Below, in pieces: positions 2 through 33,908 of a stretch of DNA of 43,223 nt. The position numbers and the translations under genes were made by a program. The notes under the pieces were generated by a model. The model saw only the letters and a program-made list of their open reading frames with translations. It had not been told where the DNA came from and did not search any database. This DNA is from a virus. The DNA lies in IMG/VR virus record IMGVR_UViG_3300036985_003399, positions 1 through 43,223 of that record; one strand, written 5' to 3'. Each line of letters opens with the position of its first letter. The first letter of the stretch is position 1.

Positions 2-2353
2 GAAGATGAATTGTCTGGCCGCGCAAATACAAAGTTATCGACTACCGGAAAACCATTGCTGCCGAGAAATGCTCAGAAAAATCTGAAGGGCGCCATCAAT
101 CAATCTAAAGGAAAGCATGGTCCTGTTGGAGTGTTGCCTGAAGGTCTCGGTGATGACTTCTCCGACATGGCCAAGGGAATGAAGAATAAAGATGGTTCTC
201 CTCGATTCGCCAATGTGCGTCAAGGCAAGCCACCAGTCAAGCCTGCTGGAAAAGCAACAGCACCAAGAGCCGCTGAAAAAGGTGCTACAAGCCCAGCAGA
301 CTGGTATGATCAAGCATCAGGTGGTCGTCGCTATACCGGTGACAGCAAGGTACCAACAGGAACAATGGTTGAGGGTTCTGGTCCCAAAGAAAAACAGAAA
401 CGACCATTTCAATCTTTAGATCAAATGCGAGATACCGCTAAACAAAAGTCCGAGAAAAATAAACAGGACAAGAAGGCATCAGCCGCAGAAAAGATTGGTA
501 AGAAACAAGTAGAAGAAGGTTACTACGCCACAGGTCGTAAGTCAAGTTACTCTGACGCTGTTCCTCAGGTCAAGATCATTCTTCAACACTCCAGACAACT
601 GGAAGAAGGCGAACGCCGCTATCGTGCGATTGAACGCATCTTCGTGGAAAATGCCGCTGGTGAACGCTTCCTGTTAGACACAACGAAGCCAGGTCTGGCC
701 CGTGTGTATGCCCGTCACATTGCAGAAGGCGGAACACCGTATGATGAACAAGGTAAACACATTCATTCGCTGTGCGAAGAATACACAAAGATGGCCGGAT
801 TCGTTCGCGCCACTCGCAATGGACAGTTCAACGAATCAACTCAATCTCTGGTGAATGAAGGGGTCAATCACTACAATAATCTGCGCGAGACTCTGCACAA
901 GATGGCTGGTCGTCGCGGATACAATGCTTACTTTGAATCATGGACTCCTACACTCACAGAAGATGAGGATTCAACTGACCTAAGCGAAATGTTCGCCTCG
1001 ACAGAACTCGATCCAAGAATTGAATCAGTGATGCCGATTCTGCGTAAGTTGAACAAAAACATCACCGAAGTTGATCACTCTGCTGAATTGGCCGAGTGGG
1101 CTGATGATGTCATTGATGAATCACTTGGCCTTGCCGAAGTTTCAAACGATTTACTTGGTCGTTATAAAAAAAAAGCCGGTAAAGAAGCCTCAGGCCTAGA
1201 TACATTTGCCAATGCCGTAGCCAAAAAAGGTGAAGACCCTGCCTACAGTAGGGCAGCAGACTGGGCAACAAAACGAGCCAACAAACGCTTCTCCGGCATC
1301 GTCAAAGCCACAAACAAAGAATTTGCCAATGATGCGAAACCAGTAGAAGAAGGTGATGGTCTTGAATCAAACAATCCGGAAGGCATTCCTGAAGCAACTA
1401 ATCCAAGACAAGCCGAGCGTGATCGTCGCAATGCCATCATGACCAGAGCAGCAATGCCCAATGAGCCTAAACAAACTCAGGCACCTTTCCCAGACACCAA
1501 GCAAGGTGCTGTGGCATCATTATCTAAAAATGCTAACCCAAGATTTGTCAAGCAAATGGATCTGCCAAACTGCGTGGTACATGCTGATCCTCAAGTCGAG
1601 GGTGTATGGGCCATTGACAACTACACAACAGGTGTGCGAGTAATCGTTTATCTAGCCGGATACAGAGGACCAATGGGTGATATTCGTGGACCATACGATG
1701 ACTTTGAAGAAGGTCAAATCCCAAAGAGAGAGATGATGCGTCATCAGCGTAATGATCAGGCCCAGAATGATGTGGAAGATGAAATGATGGAAAACCGAGA
1801 TGAACTAGACAATCAAAGTCGTGGCCTCCTCGCACCAGGTGGAATACTCAAAAAACTGAAGAAAGACCTAAGATATGCTCTGGACTCAGGACTCAGTTCA
1901 GAACAAGAGGTTGCCCGATTGCGAGCTAAGATTGCGGAACTTGAGGGTAGGAAGCAAGGCAAAGTGAGTGAAGCACTCGTTGGTTCAAATTCCGATATGG
2001 CAAAATACACTCACCCAGACATTGAAAACGAATCATTCAAGGTAGGTGACAAGGTAATCAAAACTTTTGGTGACGGTACCAAAGCAGAAGGAAAACTAAC
2101 CAAGCAAGCAAGAACAAGAACTGGTGCCGATGTTTTCTATTTCAAACCAACATCACCAATGGGTTCTCGTTGGGTAGGTTGGTGTAATGTCGCCGATCTA
2201 ACTAAGAAATCTATAGAAGAAGACCTCGGTCCGGAACAAAAGAAAGTCGGGCAAGCTGGACCAACCGACAAGGCACCGTTGCGTGGTAAGTTAGTCGGAG
2301 CATGTGAGAGTGTTGATCATTTGGCACACATCGTAAAACTCTCAAAAGGATAA
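2..2353 (+). CDS. Large conserved T4-like phage protein, 5' end outside window
   Basis: The reading frame is already open at base 2 (Glu-Asp-Glu before the first possible TTG at 11), so the gene probably starts upstream of the window. About 780 residues are visible. The first 170 are basic, low-complexity and Lys/Gly/Ala rich. A compact region follows at roughly residues 185-330, with segments such as IERIFVENAAGERFLL and RHIAEGGTPYD that resemble a family of uncharacterised proteins in T4-like marine phages (from memory, not searched). The middle is charged and probably disordered. A short beta-rich, SH3-like end (FKVGDKVIKTFGDGTKAEG, near residue 675) closes the protein. No enzyme motif is seen. 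A virion or head-associated role is inference only. Confidence 0.6.
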   Translation, partial: EDELSGRANTKLSTTGKPLLPRNAQKNLKGAINQSKGKHGPVGVLPEGLGDDFSDMAKGMKNKDGSPRFANVRQGKPPVKPAGKATAPRAAEKGATSPADWYDQASGGRRYTGDSKVPTGTMVEGSGPKEKQKRPFQSLDQMRDTAKQKSEKNKQDKKASAAEKIGKKQVEEGYYATGRKSSYSDAVPQVKIILQHSRQLEEGERRYRAIERIFVENAAGERFLLDTTKPGLARVYARHIAEGGTPYDEQGKHIHSLCEEYTKMAGFVRATRNGQFNESTQSLVNEGVNHYNNLRETLHKMAGRRGYNAYFESWTPTLTEDEDSTDLSEMFASTELDPRIESVMPILRKLNKNITEVDHSAELAEWADDVIDESLGLAEVSNDLLGRYKKKAGKEASGLDTFANAVAKKGEDPAYSRAADWATKRANKRFSGIVKATNKEFANDAKPVEEGDGLESNNPEGIPEATNPRQAERDRRNAIMTRAAMPNEPKQTQAPFPDTKQGAVASLSKNANPRFVKQMDLPNCVVHADPQVEGVWAIDNYTTGVRVIVYLAGYRGPMGDIRGPYDDFEEGQIPKREMMRHQRNDQAQNDVEDEMMENRDELDNQSRGLLAPGGILKKLKKDLRYALDSGLSSEQEVARLRAKIAELEGRKQGKVSEALVGSNSDMAKYTHPDIENESFKVGDKVIKTFGDGTKAEGKLTKQARTRTGADVFYFKPTSPMGSRWVGWCNVADLTKKSIEEDLGPEQKKVGQAGPTDKAPLRGKLVGACESVDHLAHIVKLSKG

Positions 2354-14104: not shown

Positions 14105-14608
14105 ATGTTCATATTAACCCTTGACAACAATACCAGATATAATCTGGAAACTCTCCCGGATGAGATTGACGACCTACGGTTTGCCATTCTTGACAATTCA
14201 AATCCTCAGAATGTTGACTATCATTACATTCCGCTGATCTTTCTGGAATCATTCAATTCTCCTGCGCTGGTTCTAAGAATTGGTTCAAGCACGGTGAAGA
14301 TGCCAGTAGATTGGCAAATTGTCATTGGTGAAAAGGAACACGGTGATCTGGAAACATTGCCGCTGACCAGCATCAATGACCGCGGTTTCAACGCATTTGA
14401 ATTCAACCCGCTTACTTCATTCTCTCCCTCATTCCTTCCTATTGAAATTGTGGACATTTACAATGATGTCACATGGTATGCACCGCGCTTGAAGAATGGT
14501 CAATTCCTGTGCGTCCCCATTGAAGACGGACCGAAACCACGGTGCGTGTACTTTGTCAAAGAAGTATCACGTAATTGCGAAGTCATTGATTATTCACAGG
14601 CGTTTTAA
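14105..14608 (+). CDS. Conserved T4-like phage protein, 167 residues
   Basis: Mostly beta by composition. Stretches such as NAFEFNPLTSFSPSFLPIEI (132-151 region) and CVYFVKEVSRNCEVIDY at the end resemble an uncharacterised protein common in T4-like marine phages (memory). No catalytic motif. The start is fixed by a promoter whose -10 ends 5 bases upstream. The stop overlaps the next ATG (TAATG). Confidence 0.7.
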   Translation: MFILTLDNNTRYNLETLPDEIDDLRFAILDNSNPQNVDYHYIPLIFLESFNSPALVLRIGSSTVKMPVDWQIVIGEKEHGDLETLPLTSINDRGFNAFEFNPLTSFSPSFLPIEIVDIYNDVTWYAPRLKNGQFLCVPIEDGPKPRCVYFVKEVSRNCEVIDYSQAF

Positions 14609-15024
14609 TGTTGGTATTTACATATGGAATGTTGACAAACAGTAATATCATGTCAGCAGAAGCACGAAGATTAGGAGCGGCCGAACTGCCGGGATTCGCC
14701 TGGGAGATGCTCAGTCATGCCAACGTGTTTAGGCGTCCGGGTAACTCGGTCCTTGGCGTTCTATGGGAAATAGACTATAATCTGTTGAAGCAACTAGACA
14801 GACGCGAAGGATATCCTTATTCTTATACAAGGGAAATGGTCCGGGTCCAGCACCGCGGGCGAACAAGGGCAGCATGGGTTTACATCATGACACGGCATCA
14901 CCGTCGTCAAGTCCGTGAATGTTACCCAAGTGAGCATTATTTTTACTCGGTGTTAGAAGGTCTGGAAGAATCTGGAATTGCTGACCCTAATTTAGAACAC
15001 CATGACGCATACGGATATAATTGA
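14608..15024 (+). CDS. Gamma-glutamylcyclotransferase-like (GGCT/AIG2 fold) protein
   Basis: 138 residues. The N-terminal YGMLTN (6-11) corresponds to the YGxL substrate loop, and LDRREGYPYSYTRE (63-76) contains the conserved catalytic Glu (near residue 67) of the family. GGCT-fold enzymes cyclise gamma-glutamyl amines and release 5-oxoproline; the phage substrate is unknown. Coupled to the preceding gene by TAATG. It overlaps the next gene by 23 bases. Confidence 0.75.
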   Translation: MLVFTYGMLTNSNIMSAEARRLGAAELPGFAWEMLSHANVFRRPGNSVLGVLWEIDYNLLKQLDRREGYPYSYTREMVRVQHRGRTRAAWVYIMTRHHRRQVRECYPSEHYFYSVLEGLEESGIADPNLEHHDAYGYN

Positions 15025-15872: not shown

Positions 15873-16548
15873 ACCGAAGTTCGGATGCGAGTTCTGCGGA
15901 CGAACTTTCCTTCGGGAGACCACAGAGTTCAAACATATCTGTGAGTATAAACACCGCTGGCAAGAAAAAGACAAGCAAGGTAATCGCATCGGCTTTCAAA
16001 CATGGCTGCAATTCTACACAAAGAATAGCACCAGTAAGAAGAATCGCACCTATCAGGAATTCATAAAGAGCGCATATTATACGGCGTTTGCAAAGTTCGG
16101 CACTCATTGTGTGAACATCAATGCAATCAATGTGTCAAGGTTTGCCGACTGGTTATTGAAAGAACAAATCAAGATTGACCAATGGTGTCACGATTCAATC
16201 TACACTCGGTATCTCATTGAGTATATAAGAATTGAGGATCCATTTGATGCCATTCATCGCAGCGTTGAAACCTGTATTCGGATGACCAAGGAAGAAGGAA
16301 TTCAACCAAATGATCTGCTACGGTTTGGGAACCCGAATAAAATCTGCTATCAGATCACCCTTGGCAAGATTTCGCCTTGGTTGTTGTATCAAAGCGACAG
16401 TGGTACCACCTTTCTCTCGACATTAAATCAAGATCATGTTAGAATAGTTATTGATTATATTAACCCGGAACAATGGGCAATTAAATTTAAGCGCGACCCC
16501 GATGCTGCTAAACAGGTAAAGGAGTTGTTACAACAAGCAGGATACTGA
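15850..16548 (+). CDS. Zinc-finger phage protein, 232 residues
   Basis: The N-terminus holds a zinc-finger pattern (CEFCGRTFLRETTEFKHIC at residues 13-31, with His35 also available). The rest is helical with Trp/Tyr-rich segments such as YQEFIKSAYYTAFAKFG and IKIDQWCHDSIYTRY. Similar uncharacterised proteins occur in T4-like phages near replication genes (memory). It may bind nucleic acid. Overlaps the previous gene by 23 bases. Its stop overlaps the first gene of the LRWS array (TGATG). Confidence 0.65.
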   Translation: MTETAETKPKFGCEFCGRTFLRETTEFKHICEYKHRWQEKDKQGNRIGFQTWLQFYTKNSTSKKNRTYQEFIKSAYYTAFAKFGTHCVNINAINVSRFADWLLKEQIKIDQWCHDSIYTRYLIEYIRIEDPFDAIHRSVETCIRMTKEEGIQPNDLLRFGNPNKICYQITLGKISPWLLYQSDSGTTFLSTLNQDHVRIVIDYINPEQWAIKFKRDPDAAKQVKELLQQAGY

Positions 16549-16778
16549 TGAACGCCAGAGAACGCAGACAAATTGAGAGACGGTTCAGCGAGAAAGTCGC
16601 CCTACGGTATACACATGTAGGCCCTGCCTCCGACGAATTTGACGACGAAGTAAGGGCTTGGTGCAACAAGACTATCGGACGAACGAATTGGATGCGTGAC
16701 AGCGGACACTGGTATAGTCGTTTGTACTTCTTCACCAAGCCCGAGCATTCCGTGTGGTTCAAGTTGAGGTGGTTATGA
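16548..16778 (+). CDS. LRWS-array gene 1
   Basis: 76 residues, first member of the array. It has the shared pattern WCNKTIG...LYFFTKPEHSVWFKLRWL. The 3' end reads TTGAGGTGGTTATGA, which is the C-terminus, ribosome site and overlapping start for gene 2. No catalytic motif; function unknown. Confidence 0.7.
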   Translation: MNARERRQIERRFSEKVALRYTHVGPASDEFDDEVRAWCNKTIGRTNWMRDSGHWYSRLYFFTKPEHSVWFKLRWL

Positions 16779-16972
16779 AACCATTTGGCAGAAAATATCC
16801 ATGGAGAACACCTCAGTATGTAAAGGGGTCTGATTGGTATGTCAACGTATGGAGAGAGATGAGTAGCTGGTGTACACAGGCATTTGGCCATGGTGAATGG
16901 GAGTTCTCTGATAACAGATTCATCTTCAAAACACAGGCTCATTTGGCGTTTTTTATACTGAGGTGGTCATGA
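16775..16972 (+). CDS. LRWS-array gene 2
   Basis: 65 residues from the ATG inside the junction repeat. Shared core WCTQAFGHGEWEF...FIFKTQAHLAFFILRWS. A GTG further upstream would start inside gene 1 and is not used here. Function unknown. Confidence 0.7.
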   Translation: MKPFGRKYPWRTPQYVKGSDWYVNVWREMSSWCTQAFGHGEWEFSDNRFIFKTQAHLAFFILRWS

Positions 16973-17241
16973 AAGTTGTCGTGGATCAGATCCGGTCAGC
17001 ATGGAGAGCGGCTAAGGAAGACTTCGCCCTTGATTGGATGGGTCAAAGTCCCATATGGAGGGACGGCGGGACTGATTTTGATGTTCTGGAATGGAGGAAG
17101 GGATTCTTCCTTTCTTTTTGCGCGAGGTACGGGATGGTCCCGATCTTTGAGAATGAACATTTGGCATCTACTCCGTCAATCAAATATGTTGAGGTCAACG
17201 ATGAACGATTGTTCGCGTGGTTTCTACTGAGGTGGTCATGA
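16969..17241 (+). CDS. LRWS-array gene 3
   Basis: 90 residues. Its own N-terminal half (IRSAWRAAKEDFALDWMG) is unlike the other members; the end AWFLLRWS is shared. ATGA overlap with gene 2. Confidence 0.68.
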   Translation: MKVVVDQIRSAWRAAKEDFALDWMGQSPIWRDGGTDFDVLEWRKGFFLSFCARYGMVPIFENEHLASTPSIKYVEVNDERLFAWFLLRWS

Positions 17242-17516
17242 ATGATCACAGGTACTTACATGTCAACACGGGCGTACACCCGAACCCCTGCAAGGAGATA
17301 TACATGAGAGACTATAATCCGCCGAAGTTTATGAAAATGTCTGAGGCAGATGTGGACGGAGCCATGTGGTATACCCTGTTCATTGAGCCTGAGGTCATGT
17401 TGTGGTTGAAGTCACTGAACTCCACACAATGGACCTATGTTCCTGGTGGAAGCTGGAGACTTCACGTTGACGTCCACGAACAACTGTATTTCATGTTAGT
17501 ATTGAGGTGGTCATAA
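17238..17516 (+). CDS. LRWS-array gene 4
   Basis: 92 residues, divergent N-terminus, shared end (YFMLVLRWS). The junction with gene 5 differs: Ser codon TCA is followed by TAATG, so the ribosome-site-to-ATG distance is 12 instead of 9. Confidence 0.65.
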   Translation: MNDHRYLHVNTGVHPNPCKEIYMRDYNPPKFMKMSEADVDGAMWYTLFIEPEVMLWLKSLNSTQWTYVPGGSWRLHVDVHEQLYFMLVLRWS

Positions 17517-17776
17517 TGGAATTGAAAGTCAAAGAAGAAAATTCCAATCATGAATACTTTGTTGTCGGGGTTGACGAAAGTAAATATGATTGGACACATG
17601 GTATAGGGCCAGCCAAAACAACGGAGCCATGGCACCTTGTCGATGATTGGTGTGAGCAAACATTTGGTCCGCATGGTCTATGGGGAGGTCAACCTAGTCC
17701 ATGGAAACGTATGGGACCAAACTATTTCTTTCAGTTTGAAAAAGACCGTGCATGGTTTGTATTGAGGTGGTCATGA
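17516..17776 (+). CDS. LRWS-array gene 5
   Basis: 86 residues with the full family pattern: VDDWCEQTFG, a Trp/Gly-rich loop, then YFFQFEKDRAWFVLRWS. One of the best examples of the shared domain. Confidence 0.72.
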   Translation: MELKVKEENSNHEYFVVGVDESKYDWTHGIGPAKTTEPWHLVDDWCEQTFGPHGLWGGQPSPWKRMGPNYFFQFEKDRAWFVLRWS

Positions 17777-18006
17777 ACATTATGCTGTCCAGTCATGGTC
17801 GGACTCTGGAACTATTTCCGTATTTCTATCATTCCACTCCCTTCATCAACGACGATGATGATAAGATTTTTACATGGTGCTTGAAGCAATTCGGTGAAAT
17901 ATCAATAATTGGTAACTCCGACACAGGCATCTGGTGTACTACGTTTCGCGGATTCTACTTCAAAGATGAGCAAGATTACATGCTGTGTATATTGAGGTGG
18001 TCATGA
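17773..18006 (+). CDS. LRWS-array gene 6
   Basis: 77 residues. Pattern FTWCLKQFG...GFYFKDEQDYMLCILRWS. Starts in the junction repeat of gene 5. Confidence 0.7.
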   Translation: MNIMLSSHGRTLELFPYFYHSTPFINDDDDKIFTWCLKQFGEISIIGNSDTGIWCTTFRGFYFKDEQDYMLCILRWS

Positions 18007-18212
18007 AAGGTTTCGCATACAAAGTAGAAACGACCCGACTTGATTACGCCGCGACTAAGTGGTGTAATGAAAACTTCGGACCAAGATGGAGTGCATTAGA
18101 TAACCATGACGGAATCTGGATGTGTTTCTGGGCAGGCCACATCACCGGCGGATACAACTGGCATTTCAAACATGAGAAAGATGCAATGATGTTTATATTG
18201 AGGTGGAAATAA
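18003..18212 (+). CDS. LRWS-array gene 7
   Basis: 69 residues. Pattern TKWCNENFGPRW...WHFKHEKDAMMFILRWK. The end is LRWK with a TAA stop directly abutting the next ATG (no overlap), a variant junction. Confidence 0.7.
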   Translation: MKGFAYKVETTRLDYAATKWCNENFGPRWSALDNHDGIWMCFWAGHITGGYNWHFKHEKDAMMFILRWK

Positions 18213-18518
18213 ATGCGAACACTACAGGCAAATTGGACCTGCGAGACATTTAGTGGTGACACTGCATACGACCAAGAACTGATTGATTCAATGTCCAAGT
18301 TGATACAGGAAGACATTGATTGGGGAATATTATCTACTATTCTGATCAGTTCAGGTTGGACTGCGGTTGATGCGGTGATAACCACTCGGTCAAATGATCC
18401 TGAAATCGTTGACAAATGGTTCGCTGAAAATATCAAAGGAAGCCACCGTAGTTATAACGGGCACTGGTTTTTTGAAAACGCTGCTGATGCGGCATGGTTT
18501 ATATTGAGGTGGAAATGA
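18213..18518 (+). CDS. LRWS-array gene 8
   Basis: 101 residues with a longer, divergent N-terminal region. The end WFFENAADAAWFILRWK is nearly the same as that of gene 9, at DNA level too, implying recent duplication or gene conversion of the 3' module. Confidence 0.68.
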   Translation: MRTLQANWTCETFSGDTAYDQELIDSMSKLIQEDIDWGILSTILISSGWTAVDAVITTRSNDPEIVDKWFAENIKGSHRSYNGHWFFENAADAAWFILRWK

Positions 18519-18775
18519 AGTTCTGGAACAAACACCCTGAGATAAGAAGGCGACACTGGACTATGGTGAAACTACCTCGGGATACCGATGCAGATAAGAT
18601 GTACCCGGCTGGGCACACGCCGTTTGCCGGATGGTATCAACGAGGGCCGTTTGATAAAATGAAACGAGAGTTACAACATACTCCGGGTAAAGGAAAGTTC
18701 TATATGATGATACTGAACAAAGAGATTTGGTTTGAAAACGCGGCTGATGCCACATGGTTTTTATTGAGGTTATGA
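18515..18775 (+). CDS. LRWS-array gene 9
   Basis: 86 residues, basic N-terminus (FWNKHPEIRRRHW). The end WFENAADATWFLLRL lacks the terminal Trp-Ser because the junction reads GAGGTTATGATGA: the stop falls one codon earlier. Confidence 0.66.
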   Translation: MKFWNKHPEIRRRHWTMVKLPRDTDADKMYPAGHTPFAGWYQRGPFDKMKRELQHTPGKGKFYMMILNKEIWFENAADATWFLLRL

Positions 18776-19053
18776 TGAATCCAGACACAATTAGTGGTTT
18801 TGCCCGTAAATATCGGATCAGCGGCATTGAGGTGAGGCGTAACACCAGAACCTTGGATCTGGGTTACGGCGGGCTGACGCGAGAGTATGTGTCCGGGCCC
18901 TCAGAGATTGATCTGACCATTGAAAGAGAGGGGCTGATGACTCTGATAAAACTTGACAAAAAAGCCGAGGAAGAGTATAATATCAGAATGAATAACTCGG
19001 CTGTTGCTGATGCGTATGAGAAATATCAGATGCTATTGGCACTATGTAAATAA
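18775..19053 (+). CDS. LRWS-array insert gene 10, no LRWS tail
   Basis: 92 residues. ATG 18775 is preferred over 18772 because it keeps the 9-base distance from GAGG. Ends LLALCK, so it lacks the family tail, and the gene downstream has no strong ribosome site. A consensus promoter (18953-18981) lies inside the coding sequence. Possibly an unrelated cassette insert. Confidence 0.6.
   Translation: MNPDTISGFARKYRISGIEVRRNTRTLDLGYGGLTREYVSGPSEIDLTIEREGLMTLIKLDKKAEEEYNIRMNNSAVADAYEKYQMLLALCK
18953..18981 (+). promoter_or_regulatory. Internal sigma70-type promoter in the array
   Basis: TTGACA (18953-18958), 17-base spacer, TATAAT (18976-18981), all inside array gene 10. It would transcribe the distal half of the array (genes 11-18) separately. 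Confidence 0.65.
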
Positions 19054-19475
19054 TGGTTATGGGTTACCTGCCACCTCCTCCGCCGTTTCCTGGCTTCTGG
19101 CGCCCGAATCAACCACATCCATGGCCTAATACAAAACTACAATGGGACGCACAAATGGCAATGTTCGAAATAAACAAACACGCCGGCAATCTTAAAGAAT
19201 GGCTATTCTGGAAATACGGGCGAGGCCCGACTATCACGGTGGCGTGGCCCTGCGGGCCAGTAGAGGTTCAACTTGGCCAATGCGCCGCCGTGCTGAAAGA
19301 ATCAGCAGACCCGAATGATCACTACCGCCCATGGTTAGAAAAGAATGTCGGGCGACAGAACCGAGATTGGGCCTGGCGGTGCTGCGATAATAACTGTGCA
19401 GAGAATAAATTGACAATCAAGTTCCGCAGAAGTAAAGCAAAGTTGGCAACGATGGCGGTGATGTTATGGGGCTGA
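19053..19475 (+). CDS. Array insert gene 11, Pro-rich, no LRWS tail
   Basis: 140 residues (ATG 19053, or ATG 19059 seven bases on). Pro-rich start (YLPPPPPFPGFW), then a Trp/Cys-rich body (RDWAWRCCDNNCAEN). Ends AVMLWG, only loosely like the array tail. Weak ribosome site. Function unknown. Confidence 0.55.
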   Translation: MVMGYLPPPPPFPGFWRPNQPHPWPNTKLQWDAQMAMFEINKHAGNLKEWLFWKYGRGPTITVAWPCGPVEVQLGQCAAVLKESADPNDHYRPWLEKNVGRQNRDWAWRCCDNNCAENKLTIKFRRSKAKLATMAVMLWG

Positions 19476-19702
19476 TGACTTACGAATGTGTCAATGACCC
19501 GGGTGTCATTGATTTTTATTGTGTTGATTTAGATACGCCGCAGTATACCGCCTGGACTATTGATGAACAAAACGCCCTATGGGCAATCAGAAATGATGCG
19601 CTGAAACAATTCAATGCTGAATATGTAGGATATCGATTGTTCTTCCGGACAAAAGAGCAGCAACAAAAGTTCCTAACCTGGTATGAATTGAGGTGGTCAT
19701 GA
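19475..19702 (+). CDS. LRWS-array gene 12
   Basis: 75 residues from ATG 19475 (TGATG overlap); an in-frame ATG at 19466 would add three residues. Pattern LKQFNAEYVGYRLFFRTKEQ then YELRWS restores the family tail after two non-members. Confidence 0.65.
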   Translation: MTYECVNDPGVIDFYCVDLDTPQYTAWTIDEQNALWAIRNDALKQFNAEYVGYRLFFRTKEQQQKFLTWYELRWS

Positions 19703-20109
19703 TTACTAAACACGATCCGGCATTGGTAAAATCTATAATCGCATCTTCGCAAAAGGTGCTGCTGCCGATGATTCGTCATGTATGGCCGAATACTATCGCT
19801 CAACAGATCATTGGCTGTCAGCCAATGACCGGACCGGTGGGTGAGATATTCACCATAAGTGCAGGGTACAGGCCGAAATCTAAGTACAAATTCTCCAGGG
19901 CGAAATGGTACGAGGCTGACAGGGCCATAGATCATTCTTCGCCGTGGCTGTTCATGAGATATAACAGAGAACAATTCAGTTGGTGTGTGGCACAATTCGG
20001 CCCGGCGCCTGATTATCCAGATGCCTGGAGTCGCTGGTATATGATCAATGATCGTTTCCGCTTCCGTGACGAAAGAGATTACATTCTGTTTACTCTGAGG
20101 TGGTCATGA
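19699..20109 (+). CDS. LRWS-array gene 13, largest member
   Basis: 136 residues. A unique 80-residue N-terminal extension precedes the shared domain FSWCVAQFG...RFRFRDERDYILFTLRWS. Confidence 0.7.
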   Translation: MITKHDPALVKSIIASSQKVLLPMIRHVWPNTIAQQIIGCQPMTGPVGEIFTISAGYRPKSKYKFSRAKWYEADRAIDHSSPWLFMRYNREQFSWCVAQFGPAPDYPDAWSRWYMINDRFRFRDERDYILFTLRWS

Positions 20110-20318
20110 CCCAAGATGAAACTGCTGTCTTGACTCAAGATGAAACTGATGTGTTTTACGCGATTGTCAATGCCTGGCATGAATTTGCTGGCAACGCTGC
20201 CTTGTTCAGAACATGGATAAAAGATGAATATGGGTTTATCTGGACGCCTCTCCCCAATTTTACATATGAAGTATTTGACGAGAAAAAGTTTATGTGGTTC
20301 AAGCTGAGGTGGTCATGA
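20106..20318 (+). CDS. LRWS-array gene 14
   Basis: 70 residues. N-terminus has an imperfect peptide repeat (TQDETAVL, TQDETDVF). End KKFMWFKLRWS. Confidence 0.66.
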   Translation: MTQDETAVLTQDETDVFYAIVNAWHEFAGNAALFRTWIKDEYGFIWTPLPNFTYEVFDEKKFMWFKLRWS

Positions 20319-20476
20319 AGTATCATGCCATAATTCCAATTGGCAAGGGTATTGGCGCAATGGGATGGTGCGAAGAAAATTTCGGCCAGCGCGGTGTCAA
20401 TTGGGACTGGAGAATTCCGTATTTCTATTTCAGACATAAGAAAGATTATGCCTGGTTTGTATTGAGGTGGTCATGA
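20315..20476 (+). CDS. LRWS-array gene 15, minimal member
   Basis: 53 residues, essentially only the shared domain: MGWCEENFGQRGVNW then YFYFRHKKDYAWFVLRWS. Defines the minimal cassette (162 bases). Confidence 0.7.
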   Translation: MKYHAIIPIGKGIGAMGWCEENFGQRGVNWDWRIPYFYFRHKKDYAWFVLRWS

Positions 20477-20697
20477 CCGTACATCAGACAACCATTGGTC
20501 GAGGACAATATCATCAACAACAAGAGATGGTGGATTGGTGCCGCGAACATATCGGACTGGGTAAATGGATAGAATGGGATCGTAACGTTTGGAAAGAGCA
20601 TGATTTAGCCTGGACTGTTGATGCCAGTTTTGGATACACCACTTTCTATTTCAAAGAGCAGGAACATTTAGCATGGTTCCTATTGAGGTGGGCATGA
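20473..20697 (+). CDS. LRWS-array gene 16
   Basis: 74 residues. VDWCREHIGLGKW, then FYFKEQEHLAWFLLRWA. The Ala end reflects a junction reading GAGGTGGGCATGA. Confidence 0.7.
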   Translation: MTVHQTTIGRGQYHQQQEMVDWCREHIGLGKWIEWDRNVWKEHDLAWTVDASFGYTTFYFKEQEHLAWFLLRWA

Positions 20698-20906
20698 TTA
20701 AGCGTCAATACAAAAGAGCGTACGGATACGATCCTCGTTGTTATTTTAATAACTTCATTGACGCCCACAATGGCGAGGATATCGTAGAAGAGGCGTTGAA
20801 ACCATACAAAGCAACTATAGGGAAGAGTAAGCGGAAAGATTATCTGATTAACATTAAGTGGCATGATCCGAAATTATATCTGATGTTTGTATTGAGGTGG
20901 TCATGA
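20694..20906 (+). CDS. LRWS-array gene 17
   Basis: 70 residues, Lys/Tyr-rich and divergent, with the shared end LYLMFVLRWS. Confidence 0.66.
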   Translation: MIKRQYKRAYGYDPRCYFNNFIDAHNGEDIVEEALKPYKATIGKSKRKDYLINIKWHDPKLYLMFVLRWS

Positions 20907-21312: not shown

Positions 21313-21854
21313 TGGCCCACCTTATGATAGATTGTGAAACAATCGGAATAAAATCAACAGCAGTAATACTGACAATTGGAGCGGTGAAGTTTGACCCCAA
21401 GGGGACAGGAATCATTGACCGTCTGGAATTGCGACCGACAATGGAAGACCAAGAAGCCCTTGGACGAACCGTTGATGAGGGCACCCTTCAATGGTGGTCT
21501 ACACAGAGCGAATCAGCACAAGAGGAAGCCTTCTCTGATCGTGATCGTATTCCGTTCAAAGAAGCCATGGAGAAACTATACAAGTTCTGCTGGAACCAGA
21601 ACAATGTCTGGAGTCATGGTGCCTCATTTGATGTGGTGCTCATGGAAACATGCTGGCAATCGCTTGGTATGAATGAGCCGTGGAAGTTCAGCACAGTACG
21701 GGATACCCGCACTCTGTTTGATATCACCGGTGTGTCACTCAGAGACGGCGGATATGTCACCACTCACAAAGCAGTGGAAGATGCAGCCCGTCAAGCATTC
21801 ATTGTGCAAAAGGCATACCAGAAGTTGATTGCTGCTGGTGTTGTTGCTCCATGA
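21312..21854 (+). CDS. dexA: DexA-like 3'-5' exonuclease (DEDD family)
   Basis: 180 residues with the three DEDD exonuclease motifs. Exo I is MIDCETIG (Asp7, Glu9), Exo II is WSHGASFDVVLME (about 97-109), and Exo III is THKAVEDAARQA (about 155-166). T4 DexA is a non-essential 3'-5' DNA exonuclease of 227 residues; this protein is shorter. An RNase-type (Rv2179c-like) activity is an alternative. ATGA overlap with the DnaE-like gene may mean the two act together as polymerase-like and proofreading-like parts, which is inference. Confidence 0.78.
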   Translation: MAHLMIDCETIGIKSTAVILTIGAVKFDPKGTGIIDRLELRPTMEDQEALGRTVDEGTLQWWSTQSESAQEEAFSDRDRIPFKEAMEKLYKFCWNQNNVWSHGASFDVVLMETCWQSLGMNEPWKFSTVRDTRTLFDITGVSLRDGGYVTTHKAVEDAARQAFIVQKAYQKLIAAGVVAP

Positions 21855-22432
21855 AATTCAGAGGCGATGTTGATATTGATTTTGGTTCCAGGGAATTGAT
21901 TCTTGAGCATATCAAGCACACGCCTGCGTCAATGCGAGAAGTTTCTCCGATACGAAAACATTCCTCAGGAGTTCATATCACTGACGTTCCATACGATCCA
22001 GTAAATGACATGGCCTCAATTGATTATGCCAAAGCAGAAGCCCGTGGCTATTTCAAATTGGATCTGTTGAATGTTCATGTATATTCACAGGTACGCGATG
22101 AGGCACATTTGAAGTATCTGATGAGGGAACCCAATTGGGACATGCTTCTACATAAGGAAACAGTGGAGCAACTGATTCACCTCGGTAATCACTTCTACAG
22201 CATACAACGAATGCCTGATCCAATCAATAGTATTCCACGACTGGCAATGTTCCTGGCAATTATTCGTCCGGCAAAGAAACACCTCATTGGTCAATCTTGG
22301 TCAGATGTTTCTAAGCAAGTGTGGGAGAAGGATATGGATGGGGGATATGGGTTTAAAAAGTCGCATAGCCTCGCCTATTCAATGTTGGTCGTAGTACATA
22401 TGAATTTATTAGCGGGGCATAAAGGCGTGTGA
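21851..22432 (+). CDS. Miniature DnaE-like (C-family polymerase-derived) protein
   Basis: 193 residues. Motifs of bacterial DNA polymerase III alpha appear in order but tightly compressed. DVDIDF (6-11) matches the PDxDxDF catalytic aspartates. KHSSGVHIT (36-44) matches the KHxAGVxI motif. YFKLDLLN (67-74) matches the KFDFLGL catalytic Asp. LAMFLAIIRP (131-140) matches ALYRPGP, and FKKSHSLAYSMLVVVHMNLL (168-187) matches FNKSHAxAYxxxxxxTxxLK. Full DnaE is about 1,100 residues, so most of the palm insert, fingers and accessory domains are missing. Coupled by ATGA to a DEDD exonuclease. Polymerase activity is doubtful; an endonuclease, scaffold or other derived role is possible. Confidence 0.6.
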   Translation: MKFRGDVDIDFGSRELILEHIKHTPASMREVSPIRKHSSGVHITDVPYDPVNDMASIDYAKAEARGYFKLDLLNVHVYSQVRDEAHLKYLMREPNWDMLLHKETVEQLIHLGNHFYSIQRMPDPINSIPRLAMFLAIIRPAKKHLIGQSWSDVSKQVWEKDMDGGYGFKKSHSLAYSMLVVVHMNLLAGHKGV

Positions 22433-22458: not shown

Positions 22459-23130
22459 ATGCCTGCTCCTAAAGACTATATAAAAATTCAATATCCTAGG
22501 AAATGTAATCAGTGTAATTATATTTCTAACAATCCACAAATGTGGCATTATCACAATAGGACGCACAATCCTATTCTGCCCGATCAATTATGTGATCATG
22601 GCTGTGGTCAACCCGCACACTTTTTCAATACACACGGTAAATACACTTGCCAAAAGATAGCGCAACGCTGTCCTGAATACGTGAGAATACATACCGACCG
22701 AATCAAGCAGCAATGGGCTCGGCCTGAATCTGATGATCGAAAAAAAGCTACAGCAGATTCTATCCGCGCCCGACTTCATAATGAAGAAAGTTTTAAACGT
22801 GCTGCGGATTCTAAGCGAAAACGCTCCGGTACATATTCACCTGAAAAGGCAAAAGAGTATAGACATTACGCTAGATTTATTAGAGGTCGCGCACAGAAAT
22901 GGGCAAATGATAACGGACATGTTCTAGGAAAGCAAACCTTTCATGTAGATCATAAGTTTAGTGTGCTAGATTCTTGGAATAATAATTTGCCGGAGTCAAT
23001 TGTTAACCATCCCGCTAATCTAAGGATACTGGAGGCAAAATTAAATTCTAGTAAAGGATCGAAGAGTTCAATAACGTTAGAAGAATTGATGGGCATGATA
23101 CTTGCCGCATCAGGGAAGACGCCTGACTAA
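22459..23130 (+). CDS. HNH homing endonuclease with N-terminal zinc finger
   Basis: 223 residues. An N-terminal C2H2-like finger (CNQC...HYHNRTH) and a second Cys/His cluster (CDHGCG) precede a basic linker. The C-terminal nuclease core reads FHVDHKFSVLDSW...HPANLRILEAKLNSSKG, the phage HNH pattern (DH...NL...N..K). The same core recurs in the gene at 41737. A+T-rich compared with neighbours. The 3' end overlaps a convergent gene by 21 bases. Likely mobile. Confidence 0.8.
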   Translation: MPAPKDYIKIQYPRKCNQCNYISNNPQMWHYHNRTHNPILPDQLCDHGCGQPAHFFNTHGKYTCQKIAQRCPEYVRIHTDRIKQQWARPESDDRKKATADSIRARLHNEESFKRAADSKRKRSGTYSPEKAKEYRHYARFIRGRAQKWANDNGHVLGKQTFHVDHKFSVLDSWNNNLPESIVNHPANLRILEAKLNSSKGSKSSITLEELMGMILAASGKTPD

Positions 23131-23493
23131 AGTTATGGATCTTCGCTTTGATCTTCGTTTTGCCAGTTCTGTCATGGAACATGTCGGACCGTGTAGTATA
23201 ACAAGGCTCTTATTATTGAATGTTCGTATATACGGTTTGAATTGTGCCCAGTCTTCTCTGAGGAATAGATTGATTGGAATGAGTCTGTTTGATTCCCACC
23301 ACCAGATATCCCCAAGGGCCAGAAAGCGTTCTTTCTCACCAAGATCAATGATGGCGCCGTAGTCATATATAGTGGTTACAACATCATCCCTATTCTGAAC
23401 AATTCCAACATAGTCTTGACCTGCGTATGAAACGATTGTGATGAAAGGATGCGAGGTGGTCAGTCTTTCAAAAAACGGTTCAATAGAGGTCAT
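23110..23493 (-). CDS. Conserved T4-like phage protein, 127 residues
   Basis: Minus-strand gene behind its own late promoter, with ATG 4 bases after the GATAAATA box. Contains SYAGQDYVGIVQNRDD, then GDIWWWESNRLIPINLFL, then KRRSKRRSITLVR at the end, a set I associate with an uncharacterised protein of T4-like marine phages. The start of the fold looks like a small beta-barrel. Function unknown. Confidence 0.7.
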   Translation of the reverse strand: MTSIEPFFERLTTSHPFITIVSYAGQDYVGIVQNRDDVVTTIYDYGAIIDLGEKERFLALGDIWWWESNRLIPINLFLREDWAQFKPYIRTFNNKSLVILHGPTCSMTELAKRRSKRRSITLVRRLP

Positions 23494-24352: not shown

Positions 24353-24358
24353 GTCGTG

Positions 24359-25336
24359 ATGTTTGATATACTAAGTGTAATCCCGGGGAAGAAAAAAACT
24401 ACTGCCAGCGACTGGCATAGTTTCAACGGAGTTTGCTGCGGACATCAAGGCCATAAACCGGACAAGCGCATGAGAGCCGGTATCAAATTTGACGGCCAGA
24501 ACCGTTGGAACTACAATTGTTTCAACTGTCGGTTCACCTGTAGTTTCACTCTTGGTCGGGCCCTCAATTACAAAACCCAAAAGTTACTTGCCTGGTGCGG
24601 TATAGATCAGGAACAAATTCAGCGATGGAGTTTTGAAAGTCAACAACACAAAGACTTGTTAGATTTTACACATGCACCTCAGCATAAATCTAAGATCAGA
24701 TTCAAAGAACATACGCTGGAAAAAGACGCGGAGTTATTAGATGTTGATGACCCATCTCACCGAACATACTTGGACTATCTTAGCACACGCCATATCTCTC
24801 CTGACGATTACCCATTGTTGGTAACTCCCAAAGGACTTGGCCGATATCGTAATCGGATTATCATTCCGTACACTTACAAAAACAAGATAGTAGGACAAAC
24901 CAGTAGATTTTTAGACGGTCTTCAACCGAAGTATATCAATGAGCAACAACCGGGATATGTATTTGGATATGATTTTCAAAAGCCCAATTGGTCAGTATGT
25001 ATATTGGTCGAGGGGATTTTTGATGCGTTGAGTATCAATGGATGTGCCACTATGCACAATTCCATTGGCCCTGAACAAGCGCGGCTGCTGGCACAATTGA
25101 ACAGACAAATAATAATGGTTCCTGATCGTGACAAGACAGGGCTGGAGATATGTGAGCAGGCACTTGAATTAGGGTATAGCGTAAGTCTTCCGAAATGGGG
25201 AGCAGGGATCAAGGACGTAAATGATGCTGTGAGACGGTATGGTAGATTACCGACTCTGTTGAGTATATTACAATCAGCGACGACGAGCCGGATCAAGATA
25301 GAAATTTTAAGGAATAAACTTGTCAAAAAACTATGA
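24359..25336 (+). CDS. 61: DNA primase, gp61-like
   Basis: 325 residues (T4 gp61 is 342). N-terminal zinc-binding module CCGH...CFNC (about residues 26-57). TOPRIM core with VEGIFDALSING (Glu of the first motif) and VPDRDKTG (the DxD motif) near residue 255. It makes RNA primers on the lagging strand with the gp41-like helicase encoded immediately downstream (17-base overlap). ATG 24359 is preferred over GTG 24356; both lie at the predicted transcription start, with no ribosome site. Confidence 0.9.
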   Translation: MFDILSVIPGKKKTTASDWHSFNGVCCGHQGHKPDKRMRAGIKFDGQNRWNYNCFNCRFTCSFTLGRALNYKTQKLLAWCGIDQEQIQRWSFESQQHKDLLDFTHAPQHKSKIRFKEHTLEKDAELLDVDDPSHRTYLDYLSTRHISPDDYPLLVTPKGLGRYRNRIIIPYTYKNKIVGQTSRFLDGLQPKYINEQQPGYVFGYDFQKPNWSVCILVEGIFDALSINGCATMHNSIGPEQARLLAQLNRQIIMVPDRDKTGLEICEQALELGYSVSLPKWGAGIKDVNDAVRRYGRLPTLLSILQSATTSRIKIEILRNKLVKKL

Positions 25337-26768
25337 AAAAGAAGTGAAGTTATTGGAGTATACTCCAGATGTGCAGAAATTGTTTCTGAGAATGATGTTG
25401 ACCAACGCCGTGTTGTATGTGCGCGTGGCAAATATCATGAATACAGCCAACTTTGATAAAAGTATGCGACCAGTGGCAGAGATGTTCGTGGAGCACTCCA
25501 AGAAATACAATGTGTTACCGGATAGAACACAGATCATGGCCACAACTGGGATTGACATTGAACCAATTCCTGAATTGTCTGAGGGACATGGAGAATGGTT
25601 TCTTGATGAATTTGAATCATTTACCCGCAGACAGGAAGTAGAACGTGCCGTGTTCAAGTCGGCCGATCTACTGGAGAAGGGCGGGGACTTCGGGCCGATC
25701 TTTACGCTGATCAAGACCGCAGTCCAAATCAGTCTGCAAAAGGATCTTGGCACTGACTATTTCGCAGATCCAAGAGCGCGGCTACTAGCATTGAAGTCCA
25801 ACAACGGGCAGAATAGCACCGGTTGGAAAAGCATGGACCGGGCGTTATATGGCGGGTTCAATCGTGGTGAACTACAAATCTTCGCAGGAGGATCAGGCTC
25901 AGGTAAGTCTCTGTTCATGCAGAATCTTGCAATCAACTGGGTTGAGGCCGGACTGAACGGGGTGTATATCACTCTGGAACTTAGTGAAGGGCTATGTTCC
26001 ATGCGTATTGACAGCATGACCACAGGCACAAGTTCCAAGGATATCTTTAAGGATCTTGACAATGTGGAAATGAAGGTCAAGTTGAAGGCGAAGAAGTCAG
26101 GATCATTCCAGATCAAATACATGCCGGCGCAATCAACGGTGAATGACATACGGGCATACTGCAAAGAACTTCAGATCAAGTCAGGCATGAAACTTGACTT
26201 TCTATGTGTGGATTATCTTGATCTGTTGATGCCAATTGGAGTGAAGGTGTCTCCGGAAAATCTGTTCGTCAAGGATAAGTATGTCACCGAGGAACTGCGT
26301 AATCTGGCAGAGGAAATGAATGTGTTGTTTGTCACCGCTTCACAGTTGAATCGTGCAGCCGTTGATGAAATTGAGTTTGACCACAGTCATATCTCGGGTG
26401 GTATCTCTAAGATCAATACCGCTGACAATGTGTTCGGTATCTTTACCAGCAGGTCCATGCGCGAGAAGGGTCGGTATCAGTTACAACTGATGAAAACTCG
26501 TAGTTCCAGTGGCATCGGGCAGAAGATTGAACTGGATTTCAATGTGGAAACGCTCCGTATCACTGATCCTGACGATGAGGATGATGCTGCACCTGTTCGC
26601 CAGTCTGCACCGGGTCCTACTCCCTCCGCAGATCAAGAGAAGCCTACTTACTATACTGATACCGGCGTAATAGTGTCACAGTTCGCCGAAGAAAAGAAGC
26701 ATGTCACTGCGGATGTTCAAGGTTCCAAACTTAATGCCATTCTGAATTCGCTGAAGAATCGCCAGTAA
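25320..26768 (+). CDS. 41: Replicative helicase, gp41 (DnaB-like)
   Basis: 482 residues (T4 gp41 is 475). N-terminal helical domain, then a RecA-fold core with Walker A GGSGSGKS (190-197), a Walker B-type FLCVDYLDLL (near 294-303), TASQLNR (near 340) and the end of the core at LQLMKTRSS. Ring helicase moving 5'-3' on the lagging strand with gp61. The start is a TTG at 25320 preceded by AAGGA; the next ATG would remove conserved N-terminal sequence. The C-terminal 60 residues are acidic/Pro-rich and probably flexible. Confidence 0.93.
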   Translation: MSKNYEKEVKLLEYTPDVQKLFLRMMLTNAVLYVRVANIMNTANFDKSMRPVAEMFVEHSKKYNVLPDRTQIMATTGIDIEPIPELSEGHGEWFLDEFESFTRRQEVERAVFKSADLLEKGGDFGPIFTLIKTAVQISLQKDLGTDYFADPRARLLALKSNNGQNSTGWKSMDRALYGGFNRGELQIFAGGSGSGKSLFMQNLAINWVEAGLNGVYITLELSEGLCSMRIDSMTTGTSSKDIFKDLDNVEMKVKLKAKKSGSFQIKYMPAQSTVNDIRAYCKELQIKSGMKLDFLCVDYLDLLMPIGVKVSPENLFVKDKYVTEELRNLAEEMNVLFVTASQLNRAAVDEIEFDHSHISGGISKINTADNVFGIFTSRSMREKGRYQLQLMKTRSSSGIGQKIELDFNVETLRITDPDDEDDAAPVRQSAPGPTPSADQEKPTYYTDTGVIVSQFAEEKKHVTADVQGSKLNAILNSLKNRQ

Positions 26769-32516: not shown

Positions 32517-32597
32517 GAATATACGTCTGCATTTCGCAGATTTATGCTGTACCATCAGCGTAGGACTAGAACTCCAAATTACATAAAGGAAAACAAA

Positions 32598-33908
32598 ATG
32601 GGACGCCCTCTTAAAAAATCATATTTCGGATCTGAAACTGTCAACGGCGAAAGCATTGCCAGTATCACAATCGGTGGTGTTAACAATGCCTACATCACAA
32701 TTCCAAATTTCACTGTTGCTGCTCCGACACTACCAGGTGGTGTAACAGCAACAACAGCAGTTCACATGGGTGTAGTTGGTATCACTAACTTCACCGCAGG
32801 AACAAGCGGATACGCCGCAGGTCAAACATTGACTCTCACTGGTGGAACAGGTACCCCAGGTACGCTGACAGTAAGCACAACCCGTGTCAACACAACTACT
32901 CTGGTAGCTCGTGGCACTGGATATGCTCCTACAAATCTGCTAACACTAGCGACAGGAACTGGAACTGCTGCAACAGCAACAGTTACAACAACTCAAGTCA
33001 AAACTGTAACCTGGACCGCAGGCGGCACAGGGTTTGCTCCAGGAGCATCAGTGCAGACAGTAGCCACCGGCACAGGTACTTCGGCAACAGTTACCGTCAC
33101 TGCTGACGGTGCAGGTGCTGTAACTGGCGTGGCATTCTTGACAGCAGGTTCTTATACTGTTAACCCGACGCTTATTGGTGTTGCGGTATCAGGTGGTGCT
33201 GCTGATTTGGTTGTTGATCTTGTTATGGAAATCGGAACAATTACTGGTCCTACTGGATACGGTTCATACACAGTCAATCCGACACTCACTGCCGGAGCAA
33301 CTACTGGGGCTGGCACCGATGCTACTATCACAGTGACTATGGGCGCGCTTACTGCCGTAGTTGCAACTGCCGGTGATTACACTGTGCTACCTGCTGATGT
33401 GACAATCGTGCCTGCTACGGGCGGTGGCACAGGAGCGTTATTCAATCTGACTTTCAAGGTTGTCAGCGCAGCAATCGTGCTTGCTGGTTCCGGATATGCT
33501 TCAGTTCCAGTAGTCACTGTGTCTGCAGGTAACGCAACTGGTGTGGCAGTATTGACGACTGGCGGCGCAAACGCAATCGTTGCTTATGCTTACACAGGCG
33601 GCAGCAACAAGATTGCTGACATTGTGAAGCAAGAAGGTTCAACATACTACAAGGTTCTGACTTCGGACAGCGTAGTTGGTGTTGATGATCGCGCTGTGTT
33701 ACAACCGCACACCCCAGCTGCTGTTGGTGAAATGACAATCACTGCGTTTGACGAGGGCGGTGGAACTTACTTTGTGACAAAACTCACAATGAATTTGGCA
33801 ACTCTTGTACCTGACACAGGTGTTGTGTATGCTGCTAATACAGCAGTTCAGTGGTCGTTTGCAGCAGCAGTTGACGCAACTCCAATCGTTCAGATTCAGA
33901 ACGCATAA
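32598..33908 (+). CDS. Large repetitive virion protein, 436 residues
   Basis: ATG 32598 after AAAGGAAAAC; an upstream ATG at 32544 lies in the leader and gives an unlikely basic peptide. The body is built from irregular Gly/Thr/Val/Ala repeats (GSYTVNPT, AGTSGYAAGQTLTLTGG, GSGYASVPVVTVSAG), consistent with beta-solenoid or stacked beta-sandwich modules on the virion surface. The C-terminal 110 residues differ and look globular. Late promoter. Identity not recognised. Confidence 0.62.
   Translation: MGRPLKKSYFGSETVNGESIASITIGGVNNAYITIPNFTVAAPTLPGGVTATTAVHMGVVGITNFTAGTSGYAAGQTLTLTGGTGTPGTLTVSTTRVNTTTLVARGTGYAPTNLLTLATGTGTAATATVTTTQVKTVTWTAGGTGFAPGASVQTVATGTGTSATVTVTADGAGAVTGVAFLTAGSYTVNPTLIGVAVSGGAADLVVDLVMEIGTITGPTGYGSYTVNPTLTAGATTGAGTDATITVTMGALTAVVATAGDYTVLPADVTIVPATGGGTGALFNLTFKVVSAAIVLAGSGYASVPVVTVSAGNATGVAVLTTGGANAIVAYAYTGGSNKIADIVKQEGSTYYKVLTSDSVVGVDDRAVLQPHTPAAVGEMTITAFDEGGGTYFVTKLTMNLATLVPDTGVVYAANTAVQWSFAAAVDATPIVQIQNA

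What the first reader, a model, noticed from the sequence alone, without database searches (positions are those of the whole stretch)
21851..22432. 193-residue miniature of the DnaE polymerase
The catalytic aspartate motif, the KHxxGV motif, the third aspartate motif, the RPG-like motif and the NKSHAxAY-like motif appear in the right order within 190 residues, against roughly 1,100 in DnaE. All three metal-binding aspartate positions seem kept, yet most of the fold is absent. It is coupled by ATGA to a DEDD exonuclease. A shrunken polymerase active site could serve as a nuclease, nucleotidyltransferase or regulator.
Basis: partly seen in the sequence, partly recalled or inferred. Interest (0 to 1): 0.68.

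Follow-up and report, generated by a model that had tools for sequence, protein, structure and literature searches.

The report
Half of a split phage DNA polymerase
This small phage protein is one half of a stripped-down version of the bacterial replication polymerase; the other half of the active site is made by a separate gene elsewhere in the phage genome, a pairing that was proposed from sequence in 2021 but that I found no experimental test of.

Summary
The 193-aa ORF at 21851-22432 carries the DxDxDF, KHxxGV, KxD, RP and KSHxxAY motifs of DnaE (PolIII alpha) in order. The three metal-binding aspartates (D6, D8, D71 = E. coli D401, D403, D555) and the steric-gate histidine (H172 = H760) are invariant in relatives down to 34% identity. 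Template-free AlphaFold2 gives a confident fingers domain whose best solved matches are all PolIII alpha.

The interpretation needs correcting. This is not a whole shrunken polymerase. It is the C-terminal half of a phage-specific split PolIII alpha. A separate ~170-aa gene supplies the other half of the palm, including the GRGS motif. The N-half stops at a residue equivalent to E. coli 393, and this protein begins at about 396. At least 61 of 63 phage records with the C-half also hold the N-half, usually tens of kb away. Iyer et al. 2021 already described the split pair from sequence, next to a PolB replicase. The exonuclease coupling is limited to close relatives.

Most likely the two proteins assemble into a thumb-less, low-processivity polymerase for repair or primer/gap filling. 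Activity is unproven. New here: the exact split point, its coincidence with homing-intron insertion sites in other phages, and a missing fingers segment.

The parts
21851..22432 (+). C-terminal half of split minimal DNA polymerase III alpha (193 aa, phrog_11778)
21866..21883 (+). DVDIDF: metal-binding aspartates D6/D8 (= E. coli D401/D403) plus D10 (= D405); first palm strand of this half
   Evidence: invariant in all relatives
21956..21973 (+). KHSSGV motif (H37/G40 = E. coli H511/G514)
22052..22069 (+). FKLDLL: third metal-binding aspartate D71 (= D555) and K69 (= K553)
22262..22279 (+). IRPAKK: fingers motif aligned to DnaE FRPGP (R639, P640)
22346..22378 (+). YGFKKSHSLAY: fingers O-helix motif, H172 = steric-gate H760
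   Evidence: H760 role from PMC8485763
21312..21854 (+). DEDD 3'-5' exonuclease (Rv2179c-like, PF16473), overlaps the C-half start by ATGA
   Evidence: found upstream in 70 of 80 near relatives, in none of the 8 named jumbo phages within the stretch read
22459..23130 (+). 223-aa gene between the C-half and its usual convergent neighbour; HNH-like by eye (HVDHKFSV), phrog_23051/5104
23110..23493 (-). convergent gene phrog_11637, unknown function, next to the C-half in nearly all relatives
24356..25336 (+). DNA primase (Toprim)
25320..26768 (+). DnaB-like replicative helicase

Best explanation
The protein is the C-terminal subunit of a split, minimal C-family (PolIII alpha) polymerase of T4-like jumbo phages. 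A separate ~170-aa N-subunit, encoded elsewhere in the genome near the clamp loader, carries the GRGS nucleotide-binding half of the palm. This subunit carries the three metal-binding aspartates and a reduced fingers domain with the steric-gate histidine. The two are proposed to assemble without a covalent join into one active site. They lack the PHP, thumb and clamp/tau-binding parts, so the enzyme should add few nucleotides per binding event, filling gaps or extending primers beside the phage's family B replicase. Shown here: homology, residue conservation, the complementary split point, co-occurrence, PolB presence and the replication-gene neighbourhood. Inferred: physical assembly, catalytic activity and the repair or primer-extension role.
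For: All three aspartates, K69 and H172 are invariant in diverse relatives. The AF2 model (no templates) aligns to E. coli PolIII alpha 2hnh at Z 8.5 (3.4 A, 123 residues, 66..192 onto 403..780), with 4iqj at 8.3 and 3e0d at 7.7; the best unrelated chain is 2.7. Most of residues 1-73, the palm strands, are predicted poorly on their own. The N-half model aligns to 2hnh 278..393 at Z 10.1, and 15 PolIII entries lead its list; its profile matches E. coli DnaE 318-393 at 4.9e-12. N-half ORFs end exactly at that point in 131 of 141 strong profile matches, and C-halves start at profile position 1-5. Co-occurrence: at least 61 of 63 phage records. PolB is in 13 of 14. The C-half lies just before primase and helicase, the N-half 3-4 genes from the clamp loader. 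dN/dS 0.09. Prior description: PMC7824862.
Against: No biochemical data were found. The fingers interval between RP and KSH is 33 residues against 121 in E. coli, so the stretch with family-invariant T680, Q687, E688 and R709 is missing; these may be needed for dNTP binding. No complex could be modelled, and the palm strands of this half are low-confidence. The window is a 43-kb fragment and does not contain the N-half, so the pair is inferred for this phage from relatives. A 200-kb contig with only the C-half and a 161-kb contig with only the N-half exist, although they are fragments.
Confidence: 0.62

Rival explanations
1. The pair assembles and is catalytic but not a templated DNA polymerase: a nucleotidyltransferase (for example end-tailing or nucleotide modification of DNA or protein) built on the Pol-beta-like palm.
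For: GRGS motif and catalytic aspartates are kept while the thumb and the invariant fingers stretch 680-709 are gone.
Against: The template/dNTP-contacting O-helix motif with the steric-gate histidine is invariant, and the gene sits with primase, helicase and (N-half) clamp loader.
Confidence: 0.17
2. A non-catalytic replisome subunit: a relic polymerase fold kept as a scaffold or regulator of the primase-helicase or clamp loader.
For: Stable replication-gene neighbourhood; a full family B polymerase is already present; large parts of DnaE are missing.
Against: Exactly the catalytic residues are among the invariant ones in both halves; relics usually lose these first.
Confidence: 0.12
3. A self-contained miniature polymerase, nuclease or nucleotidyltransferase that works alone.
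For: All three metal-binding aspartates lie in this one chain.
Against: Half of the palm (GRGS) is encoded by a co-occurring second gene ending where this one begins; the palm strands do not fold confidently alone.
Confidence: 0.05
4. The halves are rejoined into one chain by a split intein or by RNA trans-splicing.
For: Cyanobacterial DnaE is split by an intein (PMC3919608); group I introns and an intein interrupt other phage PolIII genes.
Against: Nearly all N-halves have no residue after the homologous end, and C-halves start at or within a few residues of the homologous start, leaving no room for intein pieces; no Rfam intron is found at the loci scanned.
Confidence: 0.02

Closest known systems
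Split minimal DNA polymerase III alpha of group 2.2 jumbo phages (Iyer et al. 2021, PMC7824862)
   Different: No substantive difference; this is a member from an uncultured phage. The figure with their accessions is not held, so identity with phrog_11778 is inferred from text, host phages and layout.
Bacterial DnaE / PolIII alpha (E. coli DnaE, C-family)
   Same: Collinear palm and fingers motifs, three metal-binding aspartates, steric-gate histidine, predicted fingers fold.
   Different: 193 + ~170 aa in two chains against 1160 aa in one; no PHP, thumb, HhH, OB or clamp/tau-binding regions; fingers stretch with invariant R709 missing.
Truncated PolIII alpha-like gene CBB_328 of phage CBB (PMC5259590)
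   Same: It is the N-half of the same pair (CBB 242974-243492; family).
   Different: Reported as a truncated alpha subunit; the C-half gene was not recognised in the passages read.
Cellulophaga phage phiST gp044/gp045
   Same: PolIII alpha in two genes cut at the same place, before PDIDxDF.
   Different: Genes adjacent and near full size, with PHP, thumb, complete fingers and HhH.

Membership tests
Split minimal PolIII alpha of jumbo phages (Iyer et al. 2021) | C-terminal part with catalytic aspartates and template-binding part as a standalone protein | tested here: met
Split minimal PolIII alpha of jumbo phages (Iyer et al. 2021) | Partner N-terminal protein encoded at a distant locus of the same genome | tested here: inconclusive
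   Met in relatives; cannot be seen for this phage because the window is a 43-kb fragment without it
Split minimal PolIII alpha of jumbo phages (Iyer et al. 2021) | Family B DNA polymerase in the same genome | tested here: inconclusive
   Met in 13 of 14 related records with the C-half; the window's own genome is incomplete
C-family DNA polymerases (DnaE/PolC) | Metal-binding D401, D403, D555 | tested here: met
   D6, D8, D71 invariant
C-family DNA polymerases (DnaE/PolC) | GRGS half of the palm in the same chain | tested here: not met
   Encoded by the separate N-half
C-family DNA polymerases (DnaE/PolC) | PHP and (HhH)2 domains, nearly universal (PMC3919608) | tested here: not met
   No room in either half and no Pfam hit for them
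C-family DNA polymerases (DnaE/PolC) | Fingers segment with invariant Q687, E688, R709 | tested here: not met
   33 residues between R139 and H172 against 121 in E. coli
C-family DNA polymerases (DnaE/PolC) | Template-dependent DNA synthesis | not testable with these tools
   needs reconstitution of both subunits

The most novel reading that the evidence does not exclude
The pair is the smallest known C-family polymerase, working as an obligate two-protein active site cut through the palm and catalysing without the fingers segment kept by the other DnaEs compared. The cut lies where homing introns insert in other phage PolIII genes, so the split may be a fixed product of mobile-element fission.
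Probability: 0.3. Interest if true: 0.78.

Novelty: new member of a known kind. Interest (0 to 1): 0.5.

Why it matters
A polymerase whose active site is shared between two unlinked gene products would define the minimal catalytic core of the bacterial replicase family and bear on how C-family polymerases arose (Iyer et al. propose it models an ancestral state). The alternative raised here is secondary fission at a homing hot spot. Both proteins are about 20 kDa and come from culturable laboratory phages (RaK2, PA5oct, 121Q), so the open question is directly testable.

Tried and rejected
Pfam and single-sequence PDB searches with the protein gave nothing. A profile search of PDB sequences gave only sub-significant PolIII hits, together with an artefactual GCN4 hit. 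Foldseek alone put PolIII chains at E>1 for this half, mixed with unrelated chains; only the realignment separated them. The N-half was sought in the window and in the close relative L001 and not found; both are fragments. A scan of 84,980 cellular genomes found two matches, both on metagenome-assembled contigs, so a cellular family is unlikely; the pattern was narrow. Fusion or close adjacency of the jumbo-phage halves was looked for in 255 loci: no ORF holds both, and the only loci with both are ordinary split DnaEs; the closest pair seen lies about 4 kb apart. An intein or intron rejoining the halves was considered and rejected. The idea that the exonuclease is a conserved obligate partner was rejected. 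A peptide deformylase gene, not a homing endonuclease, fills the gap after the C-half in several relatives. A mirror-tree test was not run because shared descent would confound it.

Full report
What is there. The ORF 21851-22432 (+) is real, 193 aa, and starts within the stop of the preceding gene (ATGA). It belongs to phrog_11778, labelled 'DNA polymerase' (1.2e-58), with weaker matches to full-length DnaE PHROGs over the KSHxxAY region (1.6e-5, 2.4e-5). tblastn finds it in 63 phage records, nearly all jumbo phages (RaK2-like, PA5oct-like, Atu_ph07, Phosso, SCTP-2, XacN1) plus two 141-kb Alishewanella phages, and in at least 150 IMG/VR contig stretches. A scan of cellular genomes gave two hits, both on metagenome-assembled contigs. 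Many deposited copies are called hypothetical or 'putative membrane protein'.

Conservation. In 18 relatives at 34-82% identity, the invariant columns include D6, D8, D10, H37, G40, K69, D71, R139, P140, K142, K169, H172 and Y176. Against an alignment of eight DnaE proteins with E. coli numbering, the main ones correspond to D401, D403, D405, H511, G514, K553, D555, R639, P640 and H760. D401, D403 and D555 are the metal ligands, absolutely conserved in the C-family (PMC3919608); H760 is the proposed steric gate (PMC8485763). Profile-profile comparison aligns residues 30-141 collinearly to E. coli 504-641 (probability 93%, E 2.6e-7), with the DxDxDF and KSH motifs in order on either side. Median dN/dS among 129 pairs is 0.09, so the gene is under strong purifying selection.

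Structure. AlphaFold2 with 42 relatives and no templates gives pLDDT around 90 for most of residues 90-160 and the last helix, but below 50 for most of 1-73. VIA-align places four PolIII alpha structures on top (2hnh Z 8.5, 4iqj 8.3, 3e0d 7.7, 2hqa 6.8), and the next chain has Z 2.7. Foldseek alone was not significant, and helical domains can reach middling Z, so weight rests on the gap to the unrelated rows together with the sequence evidence. The poorly predicted part is what would need the rest of the palm to fold.

The missing half. PF07733 (DNA_pol3_alpha) hits a separate gene of about 170-180 aa in 14 of 16 records holding the C-half. Its invariants include the palm motif GxGRGSxxxS and a C-terminal glutamate-phenylalanine pair. 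Its profile matches E. coli DnaE 318-393 (E 4.9e-12), and its AF2 model (pLDDT 87) aligns to 278..393 of 2hnh at Z 10.1, with 15 PolIII entries leading. The N-half therefore ends at the equivalent of residue 393 (FERFLN) and the C-half begins near 396, so the cut runs through the palm between the GRGS motif and the catalytic strand. Of 141 strong N-half profile matches, 131 have no residue beyond this point, and C-halves begin at profile position 1-5. The two halves do not resemble each other (negative control).

Co-occurrence. Of the 63 phage records with the C-half, 60 appear in the printed best list for the N-half and Slicko01 in the spread list; organism counts imply the second Alishewanella phage too. 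The remaining one is a 109-kb Klebsiella record. Two N-only records that I read (Cellulophaga phiST, Alicyclobacillus KKP_3916) hold PHP-containing PolIII genes of a different build. Distances range from about 4 kb (one viral contig) through 11-43 kb to over 180 kb (Atu_ph07, Phosso); no jumbo-phage ORF holds both. Among IMG/VR fragments the pairing is often seen but not always, as expected of fragments. Co-occurrence partly reflects shared descent. The window is a 43-kb fragment with no N-half.

Surroundings. The block C-half, convergent phrog_11637 gene, (structural gene), primase, DnaB helicase is kept from the window's kin to the named jumbo phages. The N-half lies 3-4 genes from the clamp loader (or an AAA gene in the same place) in Atu_ph07, CBB and PAC2. 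A family B polymerase is present in 13 of 14 records. The DEDD exonuclease was found upstream in 70 of 80 close relatives, in most of them overlapping or abutting the C-half, and in none of the eight named phages within the stretch read; a DnaQ-like gene lies about 4.4 kb upstream in CBB. The exonuclease is therefore not a constant partner, though it may proofread.

How it most likely works. Two ~20-kDa proteins meet to form one Pol-beta-like palm with a reduced fingers domain. With no thumb, PHP, HhH or clamp- and tau-binding regions, such an enzyme should be distributive, which suits gap filling, repair or short primer extension beside PolB. One departure argues for caution: between RP and KSH there are 33 residues against 121 in E. 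coli, so the part with family-invariant T680, Q687, E688 and R709 is absent. Either nearby basic residues (invariant R139, K142) take over, or the chemistry differs. Assembly, activity and role are inference.

Relation to the literature. Iyer et al. 2021 (PMC7824862) reported a 'phage-specific minimal version' of PolIII alpha in group 2.2 jumbo phages, split into two proteins from distant genes, beside PolB, and suggested cooperation in strand synthesis or repair. The pair is therefore not new. No experimental follow-up turned up in the searches made, which cover open-licence papers only. Earlier, CBB_328 was noted as a truncated alpha subunit (PMC5259590); it is the N-half.

A possible origin. 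Other phages have near-full-size PolIII alpha genes broken at the same place. In contig L254 an ORF with LAGLIDADG matches sits between ...FSRFYNNSR and SLPDIDVDF. In KKP_3916 a LAGLIDADG ORF and a group I intron (Rfam RF00028, 2.2e-16) follow ...FARFANKGRKGS. In phiST two adjacent genes meet there. This suggests the catalytic-motif boundary is a homing hot spot and that the jumbo-phage split may be a fixed fission. That competes with Iyer et al.'s view that the minimal form is ancestral. It is a suggestion from three cases, not a test.

Noticed in passing
window 16548-20906: A run of small ORFs (60-140 aa), 13 of which end in ...LRW(S/K/A/L), mostly with overlapping stop and start codons: a tandem family of tiny proteins with a shared C-terminal tail. 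L001 has 15, L003 has 7, and most of the 90 related loci scanned have at least one.
   Followed up: partly
L254 1-1800; L257 2092-5260; L256 1843-5443: PolIII alpha genes of other phages interrupted or split between FERFLN and PDIDxDF, the cut point of the jumbo-phage pair; LAGLIDADG ORFs in L254 and L257, group I introns in L257.
   Followed up: partly
L252, L253, L255: A different two-gene split of PolIII alpha, after the third aspartate (KFDxLG...), with the fingers ORF about 2 kb downstream and a DEDD-like exonuclease ORF between; L255 carries an intein-like insert after IIRPG.
   Followed up: partly
window 23110-23493 (-): Convergent gene phrog_11637 of unknown function stays next to the C-half in nearly all relatives; possible partner.
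   Followed up: partly
window 32525-32600 (+): Rfam RF02980 'freshwater-2' RNA motif above its gathering score (53.3 bits).
   Followed up: no
L082 5001-5576 (Atu_ph07 NC_042013 58304-58879): The RefSeq CDS for the C-half starts 27 codons later than the conserved start, so the annotated protein lacks the DxDxDF catalytic motif.
   Followed up: partly
L005, L026, L027, L041, L057, L062, L075, L079: A peptide deformylase gene sits directly or closely downstream of the C-half (family search run on the L005 copy).
   Followed up: partly
window 14608-15024: Gamma-glutamyl cyclotransferase-like gene (PF06094, 1.6e-15) in the replication region.
   Followed up: no
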